Shown here: positions 27,820 to 40,497 of the stretch, piece by piece | Layout of the letters: each line of letters starts with the position of its first letter | Numbering within the stretch: position 1 is the stretch's first letter | Virus record (IMG/VR): IMGVR_UViG_3300031787_000016 | Span: 1-64,000 of that record | Direction: 5' to 3' (one strand) | Source of the DNA: a virus | DNA: 64,000 nt | Program-made: the position numbers and the translations under genes | Notes under the pieces: model-generated | The model's input: only the letters and a program-made list of their open reading frames with translations | Told to the model about the DNA's origin: nothing | The model's database searches: none

Positions 27820-29349
27820 CTAACCTTCTTGACCTCCCTCTTGAGGAGGATATTGTTCAGCTTGTCCTTCTGGCGGTGCAGGAGGAGCCTGAAGCTGATT
27901 TATCTGAGCCTGTAAGGATAGTACCTGACTTTGTTTCTCAAGTTCTTTTTGTACCTCAGCCTTGAGCGCGTCTTCTTCTTTTTTGCGTTTTTCCTCATCG
28001 TCAAGCGAAGGTAATCCGAGATTCTTACGGATAAGCCCAAGTACCTCAACGTCATCAGCAGGGATAATGCCAGATGCAATGAGAGAGGTGATGGTGCTAA
28101 GACGACCGTTAACTGTTGCTTGGTCTTCTTCGACATCGAATACAAACTCGCCCCAATCTTCACTGAACCAACTGGAAGGGAAGTTATCGTGCAATAAGCC
28201 ACGAATCATCTTGTGGATAATTTCGTGTTTGAGTGTGGTTGTTAAGGCAAAGATTGTCGAGTCAAAGGTCATCTTGAAGTTTTGACCAAAGCCGTTGTTA
28301 CCTAGATTTGTTGTGCCTGAGCCACTATTAACGTCAAAGATGCCCGAAGGTATAGCAAAGCTTGATTGAATGCCTCTGTCGATGTATTCTAGCGCTTTGA
28401 AGTGATTTTCGCTGGTGTTTTGAATTTGGATGCGGCTGAGTTCAACATCGTTGTCAGTAACAATGAATCCGCGTTTTTGAATGTCTTTTAGTTGATGACT
28501 GAGAGCAGCTTGTTTTGTTAATTGAAGTGGCTTGCCCTTGGAATCTTTTTTGACGTTACCTTGGGTATCAACCATTGTGGTTGTGCCGTTGTTAGGTGTT
28601 TTTGCCCAGAGTAGACCTTCGCTGTCGTTTTTGATGCGGAGAGCTAGATGTGTGAGCACAATTTTTTTTAATTTGTAATAATTCAGAGCGCTCAGACCGT
28701 CACCAATACCCCAAACAGCCATGCGGTCAAAGGCGGAACCTGAATTATTCGTAATATGCAGACATTTCTGATATGGAATTTTCACTATTTTTCCATTTCC
28801 ATTGTCGTACTCGATAAATTCTATATGCCCACCCTTATTTATCGTTTTTCCGAAACTAATGATATTTTCAGGATTTAATACGTTAATATTCGCAATTCGC
28901 CACTGCCCCCTATATCCTCGCACCTTCGATGATTTTGTAAATTCTGCGACCGCGACACCGTGTAGGATGACTGAGGAGAATAATTGAAACAGAATTTTCT
29001 TAAAACTTTTAGGGAGAGTTTTGAGATTGCTATTTACAAAAGCTTCTATCTCTTTCTTAGGATGGACGTATGAACCAAACGAATTTTGGGCGCGTAGTGC
29101 CTTGAAAGCTAGACACTGGGCAGCTATGGGGTCGCGGTTTGCCATCTCGCTGAGCAATTTCAGTGGAGGGCGCTCGTTTTCGTTAGGGTGAGTTATCGAT
29201 GCAAGTGCGTCTGTCGTGAGGCTCTGGTACTCGCTCGTATATTGCCCTTGGCGAAGTGCTGCCATTGGAGTAGGAGTCCCAGCAAACAACAAAGAATCGT
29301 CTAGGTCTTCTAATAAGCTTAATTGTATGGCTTCTTCTGCGACAGGCAT
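27820..29349 (-). CDS. Portal protein (Mu gp29/DUF935-like)
   Basis: 509 residues, portal-sized. N-terminal region has PPLKLLSEMANRDPIAAQCL and a middle with VILHGVAVAEFTK, WRIANINVLNPENI, YQKCLHITNNSG and FAIPSGIFDVNSGSG, matching the layout of DUF935-type portals. The C-terminus is charged coiled coil plus Pro/Gln-rich tail. Portals form the dodecameric vertex ring for DNA entry. It is 33 kb away from the capsid gene, with no terminase next to it in this window. Confidence 0.7.
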   Translation of the reverse strand: MPVAEEAIQLSLLEDLDDSLLFAGTPTPMAALRQGQYTSEYQSLTTDALASITHPNENERPPLKLLSEMANRDPIAAQCLAFKALRAQNSFGSYVHPKKEIEAFVNSNLKTLPKSFKKILFQLFSSVILHGVAVAEFTKSSKVRGYRGQWRIANINVLNPENIISFGKTINKGGHIEFIEYDNGNGKIVKIPYQKCLHITNNSGSAFDRMAVWGIGDGLSALNYYKLKKIVLTHLALRIKNDSEGLLWAKTPNNGTTTMVDTQGNVKKDSKGKPLQLTKQAALSHQLKDIQKRGFIVTDNDVELSRIQIQNTSENHFKALEYIDRGIQSSFAIPSGIFDVNSGSGTTNLGNNGFGQNFKMTFDSTIFALTTTLKHEIIHKMIRGLLHDNFPSSWFSEDWGEFVFDVEEDQATVNGRLSTITSLIASGIIPADDVEVLGLIRKNLGLPSLDDEEKRKKEEDALKAEVQKELEKQSQVLSLQAQINQLQAPPAPPEGQAEQYPPQEGGQEG

Positions 29350-29376: not shown

Positions 29377-30153
29377 CTATTCTAGCGTACTAGAACCATA
29401 GATAGATTTTTCTTCATCAGTAGCCAGTCTCCAACCATCCCATTTCGACTTAGGACTTTTAATTCTGTCCGATACAGTAGCTGGAACTACTTTTTCCCCT
29501 TCGGCTGCAAATTTTTTTGTAGGATAATATACCCCATTTATCACAACTGCTATACTTCCAGAGTTATTTGCTCCGCTATTAGCTACCCTGAGTTTTTCAA
29601 TCTCTTCTTTGGATTTAACCCTACCTATATTTGAAGCTATTAGTTTAGCTTTATTTTCTGGAGTTAAAATTTTACCTACAGTGCGTGTATGTCCCTTGTT
29701 AGCAGCACTGATTTTCGCTTTAGACTCCTCCGTATGGTGTTTACCTAACCATTTTTTATTACCAAGTTGACCTCTGCTGTAATTTAGCTTTTGTTCTTCG
29801 TTAGCAACTCTCCCTCTGTTTGCAATACTCATCTTTATTTTAGTCTGCTCGGTAGGTTTAAAGCCTACACTACCCTCCCCTCCCAGTTTTACATTGTAAA
29901 TATCAGTGCGTTTAAGGAACTCCTCATTAACCATTTCTGCTTCAGCTTTATAGGCATCTTTACAATTATTAAATTCTGCCAATGTAGTCCTAGTAAAATT
30001 TTTCCTGCCGTATTTTTCAATAGCTGGCTTTAGAATTGTTCCGCTACCTAAATAACGTCTTGAGTGCTTGGTATCAGATACTTTATGTACCCCAACATAA
30101 ATCTTGCCATTCAACAAATTCGTAGTTCGATATAATATCCAAGTCTCAGCCAT
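29377..30153 (-). CDS. GIY-YIG homing endonuclease with NUMOD3 repeats (module 1)
   Basis: 258 residues from ATG 30153, chosen by alignment with the paralogue at 34725. Residues ~3-90 are a GIY-YIG nuclease (TWILYRTTNLLNGKIYVGVH, conserved Arg in SRRYLGSG, Glu in KAEAEMVNEEF). Then NUMOD3-like DNA-binding repeats (KPTEQTKIKMSIANRGR, HTEESKAKISAANKG) and a short C-terminal helix-turn-helix-like domain. A Seg/T4-type free-standing homing endonuclease. It diverges from an RHH gene across a conserved operator. Confidence 0.85.
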   Translation of the reverse strand: MAETWILYRTTNLLNGKIYVGVHKVSDTKHSRRYLGSGTILKPAIEKYGRKNFTRTTLAEFNNCKDAYKAEAEMVNEEFLKRTDIYNVKLGGEGSVGFKPTEQTKIKMSIANRGRVANEEQKLNYSRGQLGNKKWLGKHHTEESKAKISAANKGHTRTVGKILTPENKAKLIASNIGRVKSKEEIEKLRVANSGANNSGSIAVVINGVYYPTKKFAAEGEKVVPATVSDRIKSPKSKWDGWRLATDEEKSIYGSSTLE

Positions 30154-30171
30154 TGCACATACCCATCCTTT

Positions 30172-30196
30172 CATGTATAATAAATACAGTATAACA
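30172..30196. promoter_or_regulatory. Conserved divergent operator/promoter (module 1)
   Basis: 25 bases identical, in inverted orientation, to 34683-34707. It contains TGTATAATAAATACA (inverted repeat TGTAT/ATACA), the palindrome ATACAGTAT and -10 hexamers on both strands (TATAAT toward the RHH gene, TATACT toward the endonuclease). Confidence 0.8.
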
Positions 30197-30213
30197 TATA
30201 AAAAACATAAACA

Positions 30214-30366
30214 ATGAGCAATATCGATAAAAGCAAAAGATTTAATGCGGTTATATCTGAGAAGCGCATGGATAAATTCAAGAACTATGCTGACTCCCGC
30301 CAAAAAAAGATGACCTGTCTTTTTGAGGATTGGATTGACTCTTTACCTGACACAACAGCAAAATAA
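30214..30366 (+). CDS. 50-residue ribbon-helix-helix protein (module 1)
   Basis: MSNIDKSKRFNAVISEKRMD then KNYADSRQKKMTCLFEDW and IDSLP: a basic N-terminal strand and two helices as in Arc/MetJ/CopG regulators. Same length as, and clearly homologous to, the gene at 34516-34668. Each faces a GIY-YIG gene across the same operator, so it probably represses both promoters. No ribosome site is visible. Its TAA overlaps the next ATG. Confidence 0.75.
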   Translation: MSNIDKSKRFNAVISEKRMDKFKNYADSRQKKMTCLFEDWIDSLPDTTAK

Positions 30367-31112
30367 TGCCCGATTTCACCTTCCCAGTCGTCTCTGGTCA
30401 CTCATTCCTCGCTCCTCGAAACCAAGTTGGAAAACCATTCTCTACGCTATTCATCGCTGAGGACAATGATGCCCATTTCAGCTTAAACGGAAGTTTTGAC
30501 AAGCACTTCCCCCTCTATGCCCTTACCAACATCATAAATGCCTCCACCTCTTACCGCCCAACGATTTCACTCATAAATCGTCTCGGCACAGAAACCCGAC
30601 TTACAGGCTCCGTCACTCCACAAATCTTTAAAGAGAAAATCAACAGGCGCGAAATCGGTCGAAAAAGCGAAATTCATCCAATTCTAGGTAATTCTGGGCT
30701 TGCCTTGAATACCGTATATTTTCGTGAGTTTCTCATTCCCAAGTTTGACCCACGTTATTCTCTGATTGTTGACAGCAAGTTTATAACCAACACAATCCAA
30801 AAACCCACAGACCAATTCGCAGACCTTGGAGCAAGTCCTAGCAGCGTCTTTGAGCCATTCGCAAAAGGAAGTTTAGTAAAATACACCAATCGCTACTACA
30901 GATGCCTAGAACCTACCAAAACCTACCCAAGTAGCAGCAATACCTCTTGGCAACAACTCCCAGAACGACAATCAATTTTCACGGCTGATATTTACGGCAT
31001 TTTTGGCAGCAATGTGCAATATTTACAAACTTACAGCGAAGACCGCAGTTTTCGACCAGAACAGCAAGATACCTCTCTGGTTACATATAATGTTTCATGC
31101 TTTTATGGTTAA
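30366..31112 (+). CDS. Virion-type protein with CBM-like insert
   Basis: 248 residues. Beta-rich; residues ~165-200 read FAKGSLVKYTNRYYRCLEPT then SSSNTSWQQLPE, the pattern of a small carbohydrate-binding module (CBM5/12-like: G-x-V-x-Y...Y...W-x-x-L). Probably binds host surface polysaccharide. Coupled to the RHH gene by TAATG, but their association may be incidental to an insertion of the module. Confidence 0.6.
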   Translation: MPDFTFPVVSGHSFLAPRNQVGKPFSTLFIAEDNDAHFSLNGSFDKHFPLYALTNIINASTSYRPTISLINRLGTETRLTGSVTPQIFKEKINRREIGRKSEIHPILGNSGLALNTVYFREFLIPKFDPRYSLIVDSKFITNTIQKPTDQFADLGASPSSVFEPFAKGSLVKYTNRYYRCLEPTKTYPSSSNTSWQQLPERQSIFTADIYGIFGSNVQYLQTYSEDRSFRPEQQDTSLVTYNVSCFYG

Positions 31113-31773: not shown

Positions 31774-31804
31774 TCCTTAAGATAGATATGTAAGTCAATA
31801 ATAT

Positions 31805-31815
31805 TGTGTTATATT
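31805..31815 (+). promoter_or_regulatory. Extended -10 promoter of the tRNA island
   Basis: TGTGTTATATT with its hexamer ending 7 bases before the first tRNA, so transcription would start at the tRNA 5' end. AGATAGATAT at 31780-31789 starts 30 bases before the hexamer, as at 7005. Confidence 0.6.
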
Positions 31816-31822
31816 AATAAAT

Positions 31823-31902
31823 GCCAGTGGAGTGACATGGATAATAATCACGGTTGGCTCATAACCAACAGATAGCGGTTTGTTCGATTCCCGCGACTGG
31901 CT
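31823..31902 (+). tRNA. tRNA-like, anticodon CAT, with an enlarged T arm
   Basis: Acceptor GCCAGTG pairs with GACTGGC except the last position. D arm GTGA/TCAC with GG in the loop; anticodon arm GTTGG-CTCATAA-CCAAC gives CAT (Met, or Ile after lysidine modification). T arm has TTCGATT, but the 5' strand is GCGG-TTT-G against C-CCGC: three extra bases bulge in the stem. Either a divergent or a non-functional tRNA. No CCA is encoded. Confidence 0.7.
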
Positions 31903-31908
31903 TACACC

Positions 31909-32001
31909 CTTCCGAGTGTCTCGGATTGCTTAGTGAAAGTGGCAGTTTCAACGCTGCGTCTAGCCGCATAAAGGCTAGGCTACCACAGGTGGAGACGGAA
32001 G
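31909..32001 (+). ncRNA. Structured RNA spacer between two tRNAs
   Basis: CTTCC-(GAGT)-GTCTC at 31909-31922 pairs with GAGAC-GGAAG at 31992-32001. Inside are hairpins GCAG/CTGC, CTAGCC/GGCTAG (31960-31978) and CCAC/GTGG. The four-way layout resembles a degenerate tRNA or a processing structure, but no T loop or clean 7-base anticodon loop is present. Confidence 0.45.
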
Positions 32002-32018
32002 CTAATATTGGTGTTCAT

Positions 32019-32089
32019 GCGGTTGTAGTATAGAGGAAATATGCCTACCTTCCAAGTAGGAGTCAGGATATCGTAATTCCTCAACCGCT
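32019..32089 (+). tRNA. tRNA-Gly(TCC)
   Basis: 71 nt. Acceptor GCGGTTG/CAACCGC; D arm GTAT-AGAGGAA-ATAT; anticodon arm CCTAC-CTTCCAA-GTAGG gives TCC, glycine; T arm AGGAT/TTCCT with loop ATCGTAA, which departs from the usual TTCRANY. Discriminator T; no CCA encoded. Its last base touches the stop codon of the convergent gene. Confidence 0.85.
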
Positions 32090-34023
32090 TAATCATTAAT
32101 TACAATATTCTCATTTACACTTCCTATAAAAGCATTAGGAAATAACGATGGCTCTTGGCTCAATCTCAACTTCTGCTCTGGATTAGGTGAAAGTACCAAA
32201 ATCGACTCAGTATCACTTGCAGCAATCGGTCTATATCCAATATTGAAGCTACTAACACTTGCACCATCTAAAGCCCCTAAAATTTGCGTGTATGTAGCTA
32301 TATAGCCGTTTTGCTTGGAATTTGGGTTAGTATCATCTTGTGAACTGAAAGATGGCGCTAGACTGAAGCTAGGCTGTGCTGGTGCAACACTATTATCGTA
32401 AACCCTGTCACCAGATGACGAGCTTGAGCCTATACGCTCTGGATTGACTTGATAGTAGTAACAACCTTCGTGCGAAAAGAATGGTGGCATCGAATACCGC
32501 AACACGAAGCTAAATTCTCCTCGACGAATCGGAAAATAGCCAGTCTCAGGCAAAGGCGGTGCATCCCAAGTAGTTTGTACTTGATTTGGCGCAGTTTTTA
32601 TCAAAGCTCCATAAGGCGCACTACCATCAACAAATAAAGTCGAAGGAACCTCAGTGCCAAATGTTCGACTGACAAAATAGGTATACTGATTTTTAGTTAA
32701 TGGGTAATAATCCTGAATTTTCCCGTATGCCCACCAACTTTTGTATTGCCACTCGTAACTAACACCTCTTTTGCCAACCGTACTCTTGATTTCGTAAGGA
32801 TGCTCGATTTTTCCTTCTGCCATGCCCATATCGAGGTGCAAAAGCAATGAGCCTTCCTTAGATGCTGCCAAAACACCCCAAGCATTAGGACGAATGACGT
32901 TAGACTGCTGCTGATATTTTTGTAAGCTGAATCGAGCTAAATCTGTCCCATAATCGGGCGACTGCCTTGGAGAGAACAGAAAATAATTGGTGTTACCGAC
33001 ATAAGTAGCCTCTGAGTTGCATACTTCAGTGATTGTCTTTTGCACCAATTGATTGCTCGACATTTCAGGACGCAAAGTTAGGTCAAGAGAGTAGAATGAT
33101 TTCCTTTTCTGCACAAGCACAGCGCTGTCATCAAATGCTTCTTGGTCAAACTCAACTGCTGCACTACGAGTACGCTTTCTAAGTACTGACTGACCACGAC
33201 ACCACGTAAAAGAGTATGTTGGAGTGACACTATATGATGTCACAGTGACCGAGTTCCCTCCTACACCATTAGAAATACGTTTATAGCGGGTATCGCTGGT
33301 GGAAGCTACACCGTAAACAGGTATGCGGTCTTCTGGGTCGATAACTAGGCATGACCATATACCTCCACCAAGATAAGTCAAATTATCGAGTGAGAAGTTT
33401 GACTTGAAGCACCGAGGCAATCCAGTGGCATCTAGGTCTAGTTGGTATGTCTGACGCTCTGTTATAGGCGTAGAACCACCATAAGGGGCTATATCTGCGT
33501 TATCGATGCTAACCAAAGTCCAGTCGATTTCTTTAAGCCCATCTTGCTTGTCTTTAACCGATTTGACATAAGCTAAGTGAACACTCCAACCACCACGATT
33601 GGCAGAATTGGCGCTAACATAGGCGCGGATTTGTGTTTGGTAGCTAGAAGAGAAAAAAGTGAAGATTGGCTCATTACTACCCCTCAAATCTTCATCAATA
33701 AAAACAGAGAAATAGTTTATAGCATCCTCATCTGTTTCTGGGAACTTAACAGGCGCTGGAATAGGAAATTGGGCTAATACAGCAGCTCTTTCTAAGTTGG
33801 CTTGAGAAGTTCTTAGTCGAGAAGTGATAGTTTCTAAAGAAATACCTTCTAATCTTTTTACTGTAACAAGTTTAAAGAGGGATTCCTTACTGGTTCTTTG
33901 TTTCGTTCTCGTTTGTACTTTTGTGTCTACGGTCGATTGGTTCGATATAAGTAACCACTCATCTGTTTGCGAGTCTTTTAGGAATACGCGCCCATTGTTC
34001 TCACGTTTGACAAATTTCCCCAT
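32089..34023 (-). CDS. Large virion-type protein, unknown
   Basis: 644 residues. N-terminus MGKFVKRENNGRVFLKDSQT, followed by a mostly beta, aromatic-rich sequence (FTFFSSSYQTQIRAYVSANS, RRGEFSFVLRYSMPPFFSHE). No domain recognised. The stop lies against tRNA-Gly. Two bases downstream of the FANF-tailed gene at 34026 in the same direction. A tail or baseplate role is inferred from composition. Confidence 0.65.
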   Translation of the reverse strand: MGKFVKRENNGRVFLKDSQTDEWLLISNQSTVDTKVQTRTKQRTSKESLFKLVTVKRLEGISLETITSRLRTSQANLERAAVLAQFPIPAPVKFPETDEDAINYFSVFIDEDLRGSNEPIFTFFSSSYQTQIRAYVSANSANRGGWSVHLAYVKSVKDKQDGLKEIDWTLVSIDNADIAPYGGSTPITERQTYQLDLDATGLPRCFKSNFSLDNLTYLGGGIWSCLVIDPEDRIPVYGVASTSDTRYKRISNGVGGNSVTVTSYSVTPTYSFTWCRGQSVLRKRTRSAAVEFDQEAFDDSAVLVQKRKSFYSLDLTLRPEMSSNQLVQKTITEVCNSEATYVGNTNYFLFSPRQSPDYGTDLARFSLQKYQQQSNVIRPNAWGVLAASKEGSLLLHLDMGMAEGKIEHPYEIKSTVGKRGVSYEWQYKSWWAYGKIQDYYPLTKNQYTYFVSRTFGTEVPSTLFVDGSAPYGALIKTAPNQVQTTWDAPPLPETGYFPIRRGEFSFVLRYSMPPFFSHEGCYYYQVNPERIGSSSSSGDRVYDNSVAPAQPSFSLAPSFSSQDDTNPNSKQNGYIATYTQILGALDGASVSSFNIGYRPIAASDTESILVLSPNPEQKLRLSQEPSLFPNAFIGSVNENIVIND

Positions 34024-34025
34024 TT

Positions 34026-34490
34026 TTAGAAATTTGCAAAATGTACGAAATTAGGCGCTGAAAATCCTCCATATTGCCCCGTCTGGAATTGTTGTTGACT
34101 CTTCCAATTACCAACACTCATTTTTCGACGTATCACTCCCGCCGCATCATAGAATTCATCAGGCGCAAGCTTTCTTTGGGGCTGTCTAGGAGCTTGTTGC
34201 TTAGATAATCCTCTGCCTACAGACTGTGATGCCAAAGCCTCTACACGGGCATCTGGAGCAGTTCCATACTTCACATTTGCAGAGCGTTGGTCGCGAGTTA
34301 GTGAGAATGGTGAGTTATTCAGTTTTTGATTGCCAATAGCTGCTACATTCTTTTGATTGAACGCATCTATAGCGCTTTGCTTTGTTTTAGGCACTAACGC
34401 TTGTTGACCTTTGTTTTTCAAAGTGTTTATGATGGCTTGACCTTGAGTAGCTAAACTTTTAAAAAAGAAGTCTGAAGTTTGGTATGTCAT
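34026..34490 (-). CDS. Basic disordered protein with C-terminal FANF
   Basis: 154 residues, basic and Gln/Asn-rich (KNKGQQALVPKTKQSAIDAF, KQQAPRQPQRKLAPDEF), low structure expected. It ends in FSAPNFVHFANF-stop. The same C- or N-terminal motif occurs on proteins at 20384, 26572, 41498 and 44042. A virion-internal or packaged protein is possible. Confidence 0.65.
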   Translation of the reverse strand: MTYQTSDFFFKSLATQGQAIINTLKNKGQQALVPKTKQSAIDAFNQKNVAAIGNQKLNNSPFSLTRDQRSANVKYGTAPDARVEALASQSVGRGLSKQQAPRQPQRKLAPDEFYDAAGVIRRKMSVGNWKSQQQFQTGQYGGFSAPNFVHFANF

Positions 34491-34515: not shown

Positions 34516-34668
34516 TTAGTTTAACACTTGGACTTCTGGAAGACTATCAATCCAGCACTCTATAGCTGATGTCATATCCTTATCTTGCGACTCGGCATAT
34601 TTCATCAACTTTTCATGTCTTTTTACGGACAATTTCGCATTTAATCTTTTGCTTTTATCAGGACGCAT
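34516..34668 (-). CDS. 50-residue ribbon-helix-helix protein (module 2)
   Basis: MRPDKSKRLNAKLSVKRHEK, LMKYAESQDKDMTSAIECW, IDSLP: paralogue of the gene at 30214 with conserved DKSKR, K-YA-S, MT and WIDSLP. Divergent from the GIY-YIG gene at 34725, the same arrangement as in module 1. Predicted DNA-binding repressor of the shared operator. Confidence 0.75.
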   Translation of the reverse strand: MRPDKSKRLNAKLSVKRHEKLMKYAESQDKDMTSAIECWIDSLPEVQVLN

Positions 34669-34682
34669 TTTGTACTCACGTG

Positions 34683-34707
34683 TGTTATACTGTATTTATT
34701 ATACATG
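34683..34707. promoter_or_regulatory. Conserved divergent operator/promoter (module 2)
   Basis: The same 25 bases as 30172-30196, inverted. The plus-strand extended -10 TGTGTTATACT (34681-34691) points to the endonuclease; TATAAT on the minus strand points to the RHH gene. Perfect conservation while flanks differ implies selection on protein binding. Confidence 0.8.
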
Positions 34708-34724
34708 GATATGGGATATTTGCA

Positions 34725-35621
34725 ATGGCTGACACTTGGATTTTGTATAAAACTACGAATTTGTTGAATGGCAAGATTTATGTTGGGGTACATAAAGTTG
34801 CCAATACTGCAAAATCTAGGAAATATTTAGGTAGTGGTGACGGTCTACGTGCGGCAATCAATAAACATGGCAGAGAAAATTTTACTAGAGCTACGTTAGC
34901 TGAATTTAGCTGCGCCGATGATGCTTATGAAGCTGAAGAAGAGATGGTCAATAAAGAGTTTATAAGCCGTGAAGATATCTACAATATGAAAATTGGTGGA
35001 AGGGGATGTAAAGGCTTAGCTCTTACAGAAGAGCATAAGGCAAAAATTAGTGCTTTTAACAAAGGTAAGGTTATTACACAAGAAACCAAAGCTAAGATTG
35101 CGGCTGCTAAAAAAGGGAAAGAACGTGATATTCAAACACGTGAAAAAATAAGTAACTCACTGAAAGGTAAGGTACAATCACCTGAAACCAGAGCCAAAAG
35201 AAGTATTTCTTGTAAAGGTAATACTAATGGTCTTGGTTATCGTCATACTGAAGAGGCTAAAGCTAAAATTAGTATTAATAGTAAAAATTGTAGTAAAGAA
35301 ACTAGAGACAAAATAAGCGCTGCGGGTAAAGGAAGGGTATTCTCACCTGAAACCAGAGCAAAAATGAGTGCGTCAGCCAAAGGGAAAATTGTTACAGAAG
35401 AAGCTAAAACTAACATGAGGGCAGCTTCTCCTAATAGCAAACCTGTAATAATAGACGATAAATATTATATATCAATTTCTCAAGCTGCCCGATTTCAAAA
35501 AATAGCTCTCATTACCGCTCAAAGAAGATTTAAAAGTTGTGAACCTGAATGGTTAGGGTGGCGTTTTGCTACTGAGGAAGAAATTACTAGTTTTTTGGAA
35601 GGGGGAGCGTCGGAGGAGTAA
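34725..35621 (+). CDS. GIY-YIG homing endonuclease with NUMOD3 repeats (module 2)
   Basis: 298 residues from ATG 34725; the longer frame from 34569 reads through the RHH gene and operator. Nuclease TWILYKTTNLLNGKIYVGVH, Arg in KSRKYLGSG, Glu in EAEEEMVNKEF, then about six NUMOD3 repeats (LTEEHKAKISAFNKG, SPETRAKRSISCKG) and a C-terminal DNA-binding domain (ISISQAARFQKIALITAQRR). It has about three more repeats than module 1. Its 3' end overlaps the 1636-residue gene by 35 bases. Confidence 0.85.
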   Translation: MADTWILYKTTNLLNGKIYVGVHKVANTAKSRKYLGSGDGLRAAINKHGRENFTRATLAEFSCADDAYEAEEEMVNKEFISREDIYNMKIGGRGCKGLALTEEHKAKISAFNKGKVITQETKAKIAAAKKGKERDIQTREKISNSLKGKVQSPETRAKRSISCKGNTNGLGYRHTEEAKAKISINSKNCSKETRDKISAAGKGRVFSPETRAKMSASAKGKIVTEEAKTNMRAASPNSKPVIIDDKYYISISQAARFQKIALITAQRRFKSCEPEWLGWRFATEEEITSFLEGGASEE

Positions 35622-38600
35622 ATTCCATCAGATATCTTTGAACACCATACGTGACCCTGAATCCAGTTATGTAACCGCTAAAATTGGTTATGGCATAGCC
35701 TAAATTTAGGGTGGAATCCCAACCCATATCACTATTCTTGAGCTTATCAACCAAAATACCATCTAGGTATAATTTTGTAGATTTTGTAGCTGAGGAGTTA
35801 ACCATACTCAAATGGAACCATTGTTTTGATTCAATGTCTTCAGCTACCATCGGACTTGTATAGTTTGGTTGTGATTTGTAACAGCGAATTGTATTTTCGT
35901 CATTAAAGGCAAAGATTTTTGGTGAATTAGAACCCGACGAGAGAATGCCTTGAAGGATGCTATTAGAGGAAAAAGAACCACTTGAAGAGCCCCCATCGAT
36001 TACTACAGATTCTGGCACATATTCAAATGAATCTGTTAAATCTCCCACTGACACATTGTTACTTTTTGTAAAAACAGAAGAAATAGCACTATTGAATGTA
36101 TTACTGAGAGAAGTTACTACGCGATATCCTATACTTCCAGCTCTTTTTCCCCATTCCGCAACAAATCCTTTTTCTGCCTTAACTCTATTGAGTTCTACAA
36201 TAGGTGATTCCAATGCTGAATTGCTAGTAACTGAGACACTATTTACATCACCGACCAACTTATTATCGAATCCATCCACTTTCCTAGAAAAATCACTCGT
36301 ATTTGAGATGTCAACTACATAATCAGTAGCTCCAGCAACATCACTCCAACTAATATCAAATGAAGTTGGTGTAACCGACGATGCAGGACTTGCAATAGGG
36401 GCAGAAAGAGAGAATGTGGTCAGCGATGACAGATAGATATAGAACTCGATGCAATAATCCTGATTGGCTGATAGGGGCTGATTCAGTGTCGCTACCAAAC
36501 TTGAACCCTGACCTGAAAACTTCATCGATTTAAGCAAACCCGTAGGGAAAGTATCATTTACTACGGTCACATTGTTTACTGCAATTGAGCATTCGTATTG
36601 GCTCTCATCAATAATATTTGTTCCAGTGGGTTGAATGAAGAGCAGCAAATTGTTGTAGTAGGGGTCGGGAAGGTAAGCGGGAACTACAGCAGCCCTAGTC
36701 AATGTGTTTGACGCTAAATTAGGTGTTCCAATTGCAGAGTTGACAGCATTAGCCAAAACTGCTAAGCTAAAATCTCCGCTTGTGAGAGCTTGCACTTCAA
36801 AAGTGTATACGTTGTTATTACTTGCTTTTGTTAAGCCGCCTACAATACAATTAGTGAGTGTCAGCGAAACCAAACTGAACGCTGGGGCATCTTTATTGAG
36901 TGTGGCAGTTGCATAGAGCTTAAAGCTGTTATCGTTAGGCTGCGTAGTCGCCAAAACAATAGTAAAAGGGCTATTCTCAACAAATACTGAAGTTCCGTTA
37001 GTAGTCGCGCTAAAATCCTTGTTAGGTAGGCTTGGCTCATCGTGAATAGCAATGTTGAAATATACTTGTTGGTCAATTGTCTCGTCTACTAGAAGTGTGG
37101 CGACATAAGTATTGTAAATGGTGTTGGTAACAGTTGCAGCTTGCCCTAAAATTGTCACTACAGGCAAGTTAGTAAGTGCGATGATACTGTTGAAGGTAAG
37201 CGACAGCGTATTGCCGTTGATAGCCTTATTTGGCACATTGTTGTCCGACACTAGCGAAATGTAGTCAAGCAGTTCGCTAACATCAAGGATATTTGTCACT
37301 TGGTTGTACGGAATCAGAGGTACATCATGTTGGTAAGCTGTGTAGAGTGCTTTCCCTACAGTCAAGCGTAAGTTCGACAGAAAATAAGGGGCTTGGGTAA
37401 CCCTATTCTCATAGTAACCAACTTTGAGCGCTCCACTTGAGATATTTAGTACTGTGGAAGATTCTACAAGCCCGATACGCAGTCCATTACGGTAAAAGCG
37501 ATATACATTACCTTTCTTAGTAATTGCAAAGTGTGGAAATTTCTGTTGAAGAGTATATGCCCCATTTTCGTAGGCTGGATAAATGGGCGCTCCGCTTGAG
37601 AAAATGTCTGACTCTCGCAGAGTGACCGCAGGAAACAGGTTACTGGTCAAATCGATGCTGCGAACTACCTGAATATTCCCATTTACTGCCAAGATTGCAA
37701 AGCCCGTACCTTCTTTTTCTACAGAAAAGAGATGAGTGGTGTTTTGAGGATTGAAAGTGTTGCCGCGATAATGAAACTCAATAGTCCAATCCCCATTCAT
37801 AACCAAAGACGACCCCTGACCAATCGCCTCGAAGTTATCATACGTCAATCCAGACTGCTCTAATTGAGGCACTACGGCAAGAGAGGAGTTTGTGCCTATA
37901 GGAAAGACCGTCGAGCTAAATAACGTGTTGTTAGGGATTATTTCGTCAAGCTGGTATTGGTTTGGTGAAACATCGTAAAACGTGTTGGATAAATCTAAAG
38001 GTAGCTGTAAAATTGGGAAAGCTTCGGCATAAACTCGCGCCAATAAATTGCTTTTCGATGAACTAATGGCTCCATCGGTTACACCAGCACCTTCTAGTGC
38101 CTGAACATATACTACACCTTGTTTTTCGGGCGTAACGTTGAATTGATATGTCTGCGTAATCTCGTTAATCAAAACTAAGTTGGAAAGAACTCCGTTACTA
38201 ACTCCAACCTTAGTGATATCAAATGTAATGATTGCTGCATCCCAAGTGAGTGTACAAGTAAATGACTCGTTAATATAAGGACTTGAACCACTAGTAATTG
38301 TGGGTATAGGGGCATTTTTATTAATTACATAGGTTTGACCAGTAAAACTGAGTTCACCAGTGTAGTTTGAGATAAGCGTATTAGTTCCTTTATACTTAAC
38401 CGTTCGCCTATCTACAAAATTGAGAGTCAGCTTACCGTTACCAGTTCCAGTATTAGCAGTTACAACATATTCCAACTCATTATTCTTAACCAATGAAACG
38501 AGGGACGCACCTGACACCCCTTCTATCTGAGTCAAGCTAAAATCCGCTAGAACAAAACTGTCAAACGCCTGAGCAACGTAAACATACCATTGACAAGTAC

Positions 38601-40497
38601 CTGTGCTGATAGATGGATTATTGATTACAGGAACTATTGCAAGAATACGTGCTTTAGGGTGAGTGAGGACACCTGTAGTAGTAGGGAGTGGTTGAAGACA
38701 ATGAGAATAGAAATAATCGTTAGGAACTGTCGTACTTATAAATCGAGCTGTATTTGTTACTCGTAAACCTTTGACCCCAAGACTTCTTTTAGACGATGCG
38801 TTGGAAGACACCCAAGGCGTATACAAACTACCAAAATTAAGTTCTAGCTTAGCGCTCTCTTGGTATAAAGTTCCTGAATATGCAACTGTCTTAACCAAAA
38901 CCCCATTAACATAGAAATATAGGTTATTTTCTTCCCTTGAAACTGCAAAATGAGTGTTGGGTTCAGAAAAAGGAGAGGCAATAGCTGTTGTGCTTGTAGT
39001 TATGTTAGAAGTGATACTAGCATTGTGATAAAAGATAATATCTGAACTTGGCAGGAAATAATTTGTAGTTGGGTATGTTGGGTTGACGCTGTTATTTGTT
39101 TCCGAAGCAAAGCTGCGCCAAGTGGTTCCGTCTTCGCTTACACTAAAACTAATGTAAGGGGCAGTTCGTGCAAAACCCCCTTGACCAGCATAATCTGCAT
39201 AAAAATTGAAGTCGATACTAGCAACCAGCTTACCGTTAGATGTCAACTTGAGTAGATTGACTTTTTCGACACCTTCAGTATTTGAAAGATTGTTTGCTAA
39301 CCAATCTAGCAATGTTTTTGCTGTAGTAAGAGGCGCACTATTCTCAAAAAGCCCTAAATAGAGTTCTAGCGTCCATGTAGAGGTAGATAGGTTAGTCGTA
39401 ATTTGTTCTGAGACGTATGTGGTATTGCCGTCAAGTTCTAAGAAGCCAGTATTGAAATTTGGAGTGTTCTGGCGGAGAGTAGGGCTGGCTAGGCGTTTTA
39501 GGTTTGAGGCGTAATTGTAAGCGTCAAATTGGAGAGGAAAGTTGAAAAGAGTATCTGAGTAGTTGGGGTCAATACGGTTGGCTATTCCAGACTTAGGGAA
39601 AGGCAGTGTGACGCTATAAAATGTCGAGGGGTATCTAGCAATATTTTCAGTGATACGAAAGTTGGATATACCACCGCTAAAGCTTGCATCTATTAGGTTA
39701 GTTACTTGATTGCCGAACGAACTAAAAAATGGTGAAATACCTAAGAATAGCCTATAGTCTCTTGTATCTATATTATTAGCTACAGAATGTGCCAAGTTAA
39801 AGTTACAAGCTGATACATGAGTTTCTAGGAAATTAAGGAATGTTTGTAAAGTATTGCCAATACGCTGAATGCAAACCGTGTAGAACGTTCCAGTAACAAT
39901 TGGTGAGTTGTTTATTTTAAAGCTTGCACCTTTAGCAGAAAAATAAAGGTCTGAGTTGACTAAAAATAAGCCATAGCCGCCAGTTGCACCTAATGCTGGC
40001 AATTGGGAAGGATTAAAAACATTTGAGTTGAGGCAAGTGTTTACAGAAAAGATAGTTTGTATTGGTACTATATTGTCCGTGAAAAACGAAAGCTCGATAG
40101 TGAAATTACCAGTACCAAGACTGAAACCATCTGACCAACCACTGAGTTGAATATCAGCATAGGTAGGAAGGACATTAGAGACATTTTGCCCAGTATTAAG
40201 CTCTGCGGCTCTATTAATGCGATTGAGGTAGTTGGGTATGTAAAGACAAGAGGTTACGCCAGCAAGACTTGGAATATCATTTATAGGGTAGTTTATTGAA
40301 GATTCGGTGTTTGTGCCAGTGTAGTTTTTGACATGGCGCTGATATCTGGAGTAATCTCGGCTGAAAGGCAAACCTCGACTGTTATCGGCTGCGTTGCCTG
40401 ATATGAGCAAGATAACGTCGTTGAAATATACGTCCTCGACCACAGAGTTAGTGGCATCGGCGCTTGCTAGGTATTTTGCGAGTGTTTTTCCTTCCAT
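35587..40497 (-). CDS. Giant multi-LamG adhesin/tail protein
   Basis: 1636 residues with at least four LamG/ConA-like domains. Typical pieces: NFTIELSFFTDNIVPIQTIF, GISNFRITENIARYPSTFY, WTIEFHYRGNTFN, LRLTVGKALYTAY, and near the end FSGYITGFRVTYGVQRY. Beta-sandwich linkers lie between. An FN3-type domain (TPTSFDISWSDVAGATDYVV) splits the last LamG domain. The product is likely a long glycan-binding virion fibre. The 3' end overlaps the homing endonuclease gene, a usual insertion edge. Confidence 0.8.
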   Translation of the reverse strand: MEGKTLAKYLASADATNSVVEDVYFNDVILLISGNAADNSRGLPFSRDYSRYQRHVKNYTGTNTESSINYPINDIPSLAGVTSCLYIPNYLNRINRAAELNTGQNVSNVLPTYADIQLSGWSDGFSLGTGNFTIELSFFTDNIVPIQTIFSVNTCLNSNVFNPSQLPALGATGGYGLFLVNSDLYFSAKGASFKINNSPIVTGTFYTVCIQRIGNTLQTFLNFLETHVSACNFNLAHSVANNIDTRDYRLFLGISPFFSSFGNQVTNLIDASFSGGISNFRITENIARYPSTFYSVTLPFPKSGIANRIDPNYSDTLFNFPLQFDAYNYASNLKRLASPTLRQNTPNFNTGFLELDGNTTYVSEQITTNLSTSTWTLELYLGLFENSAPLTTAKTLLDWLANNLSNTEGVEKVNLLKLTSNGKLVASIDFNFYADYAGQGGFARTAPYISFSVSEDGTTWRSFASETNNSVNPTYPTTNYFLPSSDIIFYHNASITSNITTSTTAIASPFSEPNTHFAVSREENNLYFYVNGVLVKTVAYSGTLYQESAKLELNFGSLYTPWVSSNASSKRSLGVKGLRVTNTARFISTTVPNDYFYSHCLQPLPTTTGVLTHPKARILAIVPVINNPSISTGTCQWYVYVAQAFDSFVLADFSLTQIEGVSGASLVSLVKNNELEYVVTANTGTGNGKLTLNFVDRRTVKYKGTNTLISNYTGELSFTGQTYVINKNAPIPTITSGSSPYINESFTCTLTWDAAIITFDITKVGVSNGVLSNLVLINEITQTYQFNVTPEKQGVVYVQALEGAGVTDGAISSSKSNLLARVYAEAFPILQLPLDLSNTFYDVSPNQYQLDEIIPNNTLFSSTVFPIGTNSSLAVVPQLEQSGLTYDNFEAIGQGSSLVMNGDWTIEFHYRGNTFNPQNTTHLFSVEKEGTGFAILAVNGNIQVVRSIDLTSNLFPAVTLRESDIFSSGAPIYPAYENGAYTLQQKFPHFAITKKGNVYRFYRNGLRIGLVESSTVLNISSGALKVGYYENRVTQAPYFLSNLRLTVGKALYTAYQHDVPLIPYNQVTNILDVSELLDYISLVSDNNVPNKAINGNTLSLTFNSIIALTNLPVVTILGQAATVTNTIYNTYVATLLVDETIDQQVYFNIAIHDEPSLPNKDFSATTNGTSVFVENSPFTIVLATTQPNDNSFKLYATATLNKDAPAFSLVSLTLTNCIVGGLTKASNNNVYTFEVQALTSGDFSLAVLANAVNSAIGTPNLASNTLTRAAVVPAYLPDPYYNNLLLFIQPTGTNIIDESQYECSIAVNNVTVVNDTFPTGLLKSMKFSGQGSSLVATLNQPLSANQDYCIEFYIYLSSLTTFSLSAPIASPASSVTPTSFDISWSDVAGATDYVVDISNTSDFSRKVDGFDNKLVGDVNSVSVTSNSALESPIVELNRVKAEKGFVAEWGKRAGSIGYRVVTSLSNTFNSAISSVFTKSNNVSVGDLTDSFEYVPESVVIDGGSSSGSFSSNSILQGILSSGSNSPKIFAFNDENTIRCYKSQPNYTSPMVAEDIESKQWFHLSMVNSSATKSTKLYLDGILVDKLKNSDMGWDSTLNLGYAITNFSGYITGFRVTYGVQRYLMEFTPPTLPLPKN

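What the first reader, a model, noticed from the sequence alone, without database searches (positions are those of the whole stretch)
30153..30366. Divergent RHH/GIY-YIG module, copy 1
A GIY-YIG/NUMOD3 endonuclease gene and a 50-residue ribbon-helix-helix gene diverge from a short region containing a 25-bp element. The same arrangement, RHH paralogue, endonuclease paralogue and exact 25-bp element recur at 34.5-35.6 kb. Homing endonucleases are normally solitary; a dedicated RHH repressor with promoter-embedded operator looks like a regulated, toxin-antitoxin-like homing unit.
Basis: partly seen in the sequence, partly recalled or inferred. Interest (0 to 1): 0.88.

Follow-up and report, generated by a model that had tools for sequence, protein, structure and literature searches.

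The report
Homing-nuclease cassette with divergent RHH gene
A virus of freshwater cyanobacteria carries two copies of a mobile cassette that pairs a DNA-cutting "homing" enzyme with a tiny DNA-binding protein read in the opposite direction; relatives of that small protein sit the same way beside a quite different mobile DNA cutter (TnpB) in cyanobacteria, which suggests a portable control gene for selfish nucleases.

Summary
The window is part of a 147.8-kb phage contig related to Pseudanabaena phages PA-SR01 and Pam2. It carries two divergent pairs of a 50-aa ribbon-helix-helix (RHH) gene and a Seg-like GIY-YIG/NUMOD3 endonuclease gene, each around an exact 25-bp element. The pair recurs at four insertion-site classes in related phages, and empty sites exist. 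Of 18 RHH relatives in viral contigs, 17 have the divergent GIY gene; of 21 distinct close GIY genes, 14 have the RHH.

The 25-bp element is best read as two overlapping divergent promoters: TGNTATANT (extended -10 of the nuclease) facing a reversed TATAAT (-10 of RHH). It is present in 17/17 RHH-bearing GIY genes and 0/9 RHH-less ones. An operator there is likely but unproven. A toxin-antitoxin reading is not supported.

The surprise lies outside the window. More distant members of this RHH family, unnamed in Pfam, NCBIfam and PHROGs, sit divergently beside TnpB genes across Cyanobacteria (21 of 28 sampled loci), inside the transposon where copies could be compared. The same regulator family accompanies two unrelated mobile nucleases; I found no description of this in the papers searched.

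The parts
29377..30153 (-). Copy 1 endonuclease, 258 aa, Seg-like GIY-YIG + NUMOD3
   Evidence: 42-50% identical to endonucleases of related phage modules
30153..30181 (+). Predicted RHH-1 promoter: TTGCAC just at 30153-30159, about 17-nt spacer, TATAAT (30176-30181); the scan's own best call is TGCACA, 16, TATAAT; the -35 overlaps the endonuclease start codon
   Evidence: consensus match only
30172..30196 (.). 25-bp element, copy 1: extended -10 of the endonuclease (TGTTATACT, minus strand 30196-30188) overlapping the RHH -10 region (TATAAT, plus strand)
   Evidence: conserved bipartite core in the 16 modules listed
30214..30366 (+). Copy 1 RHH gene, 50 aa
   Evidence: stop TAA overlaps the ATG of the next gene (TAATG)
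27820..29349 (-). Flanking gene at site A: portal protein; now downstream of the endonuclease
   Evidence: orthologue of Pam2_50 'portal protein'; BLAST
30366..31112 (+). Flanking gene at site A: 248-aa phage protein, now downstream of RHH-1
   Evidence: portal and this gene are separated by 42 bp and no module in PA-SR01 and Pam2
34516..34668 (-). Copy 2 RHH gene, 50 aa
   Evidence: 91% identical to the PA-SR01 protein QIW88488.1 region
34683..34707 (.). 25-bp element, copy 2, exact
34725..35621 (+). Copy 2 endonuclease, 298 aa, Seg-like GIY-YIG + six NUMOD3 stretches
34026..34490 (-). Flanking gene at site B, 154 aa, downstream of RHH-2
35587..40497 (-). Flanking gene at site B, 1636 aa, convergent with the endonuclease and overlapping it by 35 bp

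Best explanation
Each copy is a mobile homing cassette: a free-standing Seg-like GIY-YIG endonuclease plus its own RHH regulator, inserted between genes of a cyanophage. Shown here: the two genes diverge from overlapping promoter-like sequences; the cassette occupies the same sites in some relatives and is cleanly absent in others; RHH and the bipartite promoter come and go together. Inferred: the RHH dimer binds the overlapping -10 region, represses its own promoter and the nuclease promoter, and so keeps the nuclease low or delayed, limiting off-site cutting while still allowing homing in mixed infections. At site A the cassette has displaced the native divergent promoter of the portal and 248-aa genes, so both now lie downstream of its two genes. 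The same RHH family accompanies TnpB in cyanobacteria, so it looks like a portable regulator of selfish nucleases.
For: Recurrence: 17 of 18 RHH relatives in IMG/VR, plus PA-SR01 and Pam2, have the divergent GIY gene with starts 54-73 bp apart. Four insertion-site classes. Empty site A in PA-SR01 and Pam2 and empty site B in Pam2. Bipartite promoter in 17/17 RHH+ and 0/9 RHH- GIY genes, although RHH is scattered over the GIY tree (about 7 changes). RHH-like fold. TnpB pairing: divergent TnpB at 21 of 28 loci of a phylum-wide sample, TnpB confirmed by Pfam, and five dispersed copies of a 1.63-kb element with sharp ends holding both genes in Anabaenopsis.
Against: Binding, repression and cleavage are untested. 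The conserved bases coincide with -10 hexamers, which divergent promoters alone would conserve. The distance between the two half-elements varies by a few bases even between near-identical RHHs (copy 2, PA-SR01, G001), unusual for one fixed operator. Similar elements stand at native divergent genes without RHH. About a third of close GIY genes do without RHH.
Confidence: 0.6

Rival explanations
1. The 25-bp element is only a divergent promoter of the phage's ordinary type. The RHH protein is a passenger that regulates something else (phage or host genes) and happens to be co-inherited with the endonuclease.
For: The conserved bases are exactly two -10 hexamers. Similar elements occur at PA-SR01 59384 (empty site A) and 20559, both native divergent gene pairs. 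Variable spacing between half-elements.
Against: The nuclease's own TGNTATANT is missing whenever RHH is absent (0/9). The RHH family also sits divergently beside TnpB, hard to explain for a passenger.
Confidence: 0.25
2. RHH is an accessory DNA-binding subunit or positive factor for the endonuclease (target choice, timing or activation) rather than a repressor.
For: Constant pairing with two unrelated nucleases. RHH proteins can activate as well as repress (general knowledge).
Against: RHH-less GIY genes and RHH-less TnpBs are common, so the nucleases do not need it. RHH type does not track the insertion site (within-site identity 0.70, between 0.68, p=0.21).
Confidence: 0.09
3. A toxin-antitoxin-like addiction unit in which the endonuclease is the toxin and RHH the antitoxin.
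For: RHH domains are common in antitoxins (general knowledge; PMC8987985).
Against: Divergent rather than operonic. The RHH is 47-50 aa with no toxin-binding tail. RHH-less GIY genes persist in PA-SR01 and other phages.
Confidence: 0.04

Closest known systems
Free-standing Seg GIY-YIG homing endonucleases of T4-like phages (SegA-SegH)
   Same: Same protein family (PHROG 314; SegH and SegB hits); intergenic position between phage genes; empty-site relatives.
   Different: T4 seg genes are not described with a dedicated regulator gene; several are promoterless cassettes, others use T4 promoters (PMC2988022). Here a divergent RHH gene and a shared promoter region travel with the nuclease.
I-TevI of phage T4, an autorepressing homing endonuclease
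   Same: Nuclease expression limited at an operator overlapping its promoter (PMC2988022).
   Different: In I-TevI the nuclease itself is the repressor; here a separate 50-aa RHH protein is the candidate.
IS200/IS605-type tnpB-only elements (IS1341-like) of cyanobacteria
   Same: Related RHH gene, divergent from the nuclease gene with a short gap, within the mobile unit.
   Different: TnpB is an RNA-guided RuvC-type nuclease unrelated to GIY-YIG; most cyanobacterial TnpB genes lack the RHH.
Arc/CopG-type RHH repressors
   Same: Size, predicted fold, position beside overlapping divergent promoters.
   Different: No Pfam RHH family is matched above cut-off; DNA binding not tested.

Membership tests
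Seg-like free-standing GIY-YIG homing endonuclease | GIY-YIG-type catalytic residues and NUMOD DNA-binding repeats | tested here: met
   NUMOD3 above Pfam cut-off; TIGR01453 above cut-off; Tyr8, Tyr19, Gly21, Glu71 and Asn87 invariant in 12 relatives. The GIY motif itself reads ILY/YVG, and Pfam GIY-YIG models are below cut-off.
Seg-like free-standing GIY-YIG homing endonuclease | Intergenic insertion with empty sites in relatives | tested here: met
   Sites A and B empty in Pam2, site A empty in PA-SR01
Seg-like free-standing GIY-YIG homing endonuclease | Cuts the empty allele and is inherited preferentially in mixed infection | not testable with these tools
   needs biochemistry and phage crosses
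RHH (Arc/CopG/MetJ) DNA-binding proteins | Strand-helix-helix fold | tested here: inconclusive
   Helices 15-27 and 32-42 at pLDDT 85, strand not formed in the monomer model; top Foldseek hits mostly RHH but E > 0.6; best Pfam hit RHH_5 E=0.014 in 2 of 10 members
RHH (Arc/CopG/MetJ) DNA-binding proteins | Binds an operator in its own promoter | not testable with these tools
   needs gel shift; only indirect covariation evidence
Type II toxin-antitoxin system | Toxin and antitoxin in one operon | tested here: not met
   genes are divergent in every module
Type II toxin-antitoxin system | Toxin gene not kept without its antitoxin | tested here: not met
   7 of 21 distinct close GIY genes lack RHH
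TnpB-associated RHH family of cyanobacteria | Conserved RHH sequence with ...EDWIDSL C-terminal motif, divergent from a mobile nuclease | tested here: met
   38-41% identity of window RHHs to a TnpB-associated member, invariant E-W-I-D-S-L core across both groups; divergent pairing

The most novel reading that the evidence does not exclude
An undescribed family of about 50-aa RHH regulators is a portable control cassette for selfish nucleases: together with a compact divergent promoter it attaches to unrelated mobile nucleases (GIY-YIG homing endonucleases in cyanophages, RNA-guided TnpB in cyanobacteria). In the phage it additionally takes over transcription of the flanking virion genes when it inserts.
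Probability: 0.5. Interest if true: 0.76.

Novelty: new variant of a known kind. Interest (0 to 1): 0.62.

Why it matters
Selfish nucleases must be expressed enough to spread but not so much that they harm their carrier. The known phage solutions are borrowed promoters, RNA hairpins and nuclease autorepression. A dedicated small regulator gene shared by a phage homing endonuclease and by TnpB, the ancestor of Cas12, would be a new solution. It would make the question of how TnpB elements limit their own nuclease directly testable, with isolated phages (PA-SR01, Pam2) and sequenced cyanobacteria in hand.

Tried and rejected
Sequence search of solved structures with the RHH alignment gave nothing credible. 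The 20-bp core pattern in all viral contigs also hit two contigs without GIY or RHH, upstream of a phage gene (L020, L021): taken as a promoter-like match. Distant GIY homologues (L009, L010, L012) and the two T4-like Seg loci inspected (L027, L028) showed no divergent RHH. I tested whether the endonuclease C-terminus follows the insertion site: weak and inconclusive (p=0.10, one truncated row). RHH type does not follow the site (p=0.21). The GIY tree is mostly unresolved (2 starred branches), so the scattered RHH pattern is suggestive, not proven, and the 17/17 versus 0/9 association is not phylogeny-corrected (only one independent contrast on supported branches). Literature searches for RHH with homing endonuclease or with TnpB found no description; subscription-only papers and preprints are largely not held, so absence there is not proof of novelty.

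Full report
WHAT IS THERE. The window is the first 64 kb of a 147,778-bp IMG/VR virus record and is about 82% identical in DNA to Pseudanabaena phages PA-SR01 and Pam2 over large parts. The record holds only these two RHH genes and these two GIY genes.

THE ENDONUCLEASE. Both proteins match the phage homing-endonuclease PHROG 314 and TIGR01453 and carry NUMOD3 repeats. The nearest annotated relatives outside this phage group are Seg-type proteins of T4-like phages, e.g. SegH and SegB. In 12 relatives the N-terminal domain keeps Tyr8, Tyr19, Gly21, Glu71 and Asn87. That these correspond to I-TevI catalytic positions is my own reading, not tested.

MOBILITY. PA-SR01 has a module at the copy-2 site but none at the copy-1 site, and Pam2 has neither; the flanking genes are then 42-50 bp apart. 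Pam2 carries its own module elsewhere, with the RHH not annotated. Across relatives the module sits at site A (portal | 248-aa gene: copy 1, G001, G002, G003b, G004a, G005a, L080, L082), site B (154/644-aa genes | 1636-aa gene: copy 2, PA-SR01, G003a, G004b, L072, L078), site C (Pam2, L073, L074) and site D (L077). One phage keeps only an RHH remnant near site B. Gain, presence and decay are what a homing element should show.

PAIRING IN PHAGES. Of 18 RHH relatives in viral contigs, 17 have the divergent GIY gene (some contigs are near-copies of one another); the eighteenth is divergent from a pRha-type gene. From the nuclease side, 21 distinct close GIY genes were found in IMG/VR: 14 with RHH and 7 without. 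PA-SR01 has two further RHH-less GIY genes.

THE 25-BP ELEMENT. Sixteen module intergenic regions share one core: TGNTATANT, then a short variable spacer, then ATTATA or AGTATA. Read for the nuclease this is an extended -10; read backwards it is TATAAT or TATACT, the -10 of RHH, usually with a TTG-type -35 16-18 bp upstream that overlaps the nuclease start codon. The element is thus a pair of overlapping divergent promoters. RNA polymerase probably cannot use both at once, and any protein bound there would block both (inference). The RHH-bearing GIY genes all have it (17/17) and the RHH-less ones never do (0/9; naive Fisher p=3e-7, not corrected for relatedness). RHH-less GIY genes still need a promoter, so absence of the nuclease's own TGNTATANT together with RHH argues for an operator role beyond being a promoter. 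Against this, near-identical RHHs (copy 2, PA-SR01, G001) face elements with different spacing. The native divergent promoter at empty site A (TATAATAGGCATAAC, PA-SR01 59384) and one more native divergent pair (20559) look alike; these and the module are the only three matches of that pattern in PA-SR01, with none expected.

PROMOTER REPLACEMENT. At site A the RHH stop overlaps or abuts the start of the 248-aa gene (overlapping TAATG in most of the site-A modules listed), and the endonuclease stop lies about 25-40 bp before the portal start. The native divergent promoter between these two virion genes is therefore separated or replaced, and both genes become second genes behind RHH and the nuclease. 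Whether the short AT-rich gap before the portal gene holds a further promoter cannot be excluded.

WIDER FAMILY. The one scan of 84,980 bacterial and archaeal species genomes with the RHH alignment returned 18 loci, all cyanobacterial, with short RHH genes ending in ...EDWIDSL. They lie divergently beside OrfB_IS605/Cas12f1-like TnpB genes. In an even sample of 194 cyanobacterial genomes, 23 had the family, with up to tens of copies per genome; of 28 loci fetched from that search and examined (L132-L159), 21 had a divergent TnpB, usually with a gap under 90 bp. TnpB genes far outnumber the RHH (e.g. at least 150 against 45 in G007, 54 against 11 in G078), and only 2 of 30 top-scoring TnpB loci had it. 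The RHH is therefore tied to TnpB, but not TnpB to the RHH. In Anabaenopsis five dispersed copies of a 1.63-kb element, 96-99% identical with sharp ends, contain both genes. A deposited Calothrix plasmid shows the same pair as 'IS605 OrfB' (split in two frames) and 'hypothetical protein'. No curated family names this RHH.

MECHANISM. Most likely the RHH is an autorepressor that also holds down the divergent nuclease. Steps shown: gene pairing, overlapping promoter-like sequences, co-occurrence of RHH and element, mobility of the unit. Steps inferred: DNA binding, repression of both directions, benefit to the element. A role as activator or nuclease partner is possible but less likely, because many close nucleases lack the RHH. 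A toxin-antitoxin unit is unlikely (see membership test).

NOVELTY. T4 Seg and Mob genes are promoterless or use T4 promoters, and I-TevI represses itself (PMC2988022). A survey of phage HEGs (PMC10448857) held no text on an RHH partner. I found no paper linking an RHH gene to GIY-YIG homing endonucleases or to TnpB. The parts are known kinds; the combination, and its sharing between two unrelated mobile nucleases, appears new. I file it as a new variant of a known kind.

Noticed in passing
L084-L159, e.g. L093:1666-3150: Cyanobacterial tnpB-only elements carry a divergent ~48-aa RHH gene inside the transposon; Scytonema NIES-4073 has 45 RHH matches. No description found in the held papers.
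   Followed up: partly
L081:1250-2260: A phage contig in which an RHH of this family is divergent from a pRha-type regulator (PF09669) instead of a nuclease: a third kind of partner.
   Followed up: no
window 31826-32018: Apparently non-coding stretch before tRNA-Gly (32019-32089); 115 bp (31904-32018) are 99% identical to a related phage whose genes are only ~70% identical here, with a tRNA-Met-like (CAT) hairpin that ARAGORN does not call. No Rfam family; no match in the phage collection for the 31780-32100 stretch.
   Followed up: partly
PA-SR01 80031-81269 (MT234670.1): PA-SR01 itself carries an annotated TnpB, with no neighbouring RHH noted, so both nuclease types occur in this phage group.
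   Followed up: no
L066:1501-1587 (G001 76291-76377): RHH remnant between the 644-aa and 154-aa genes without endonuclease: a decayed module.
   Followed up: yes
L026 (Pam2 80698-80841): Unannotated RHH gene beside the annotated Seg-like endonuclease Pam2_85.
   Followed up: yes
L017:4766-5588 (G004b): Site-B endonuclease with its frame interrupted after 201 codons; the C-terminal homology continues beyond the break, so probably inactive while its RHH is intact.
   Followed up: no
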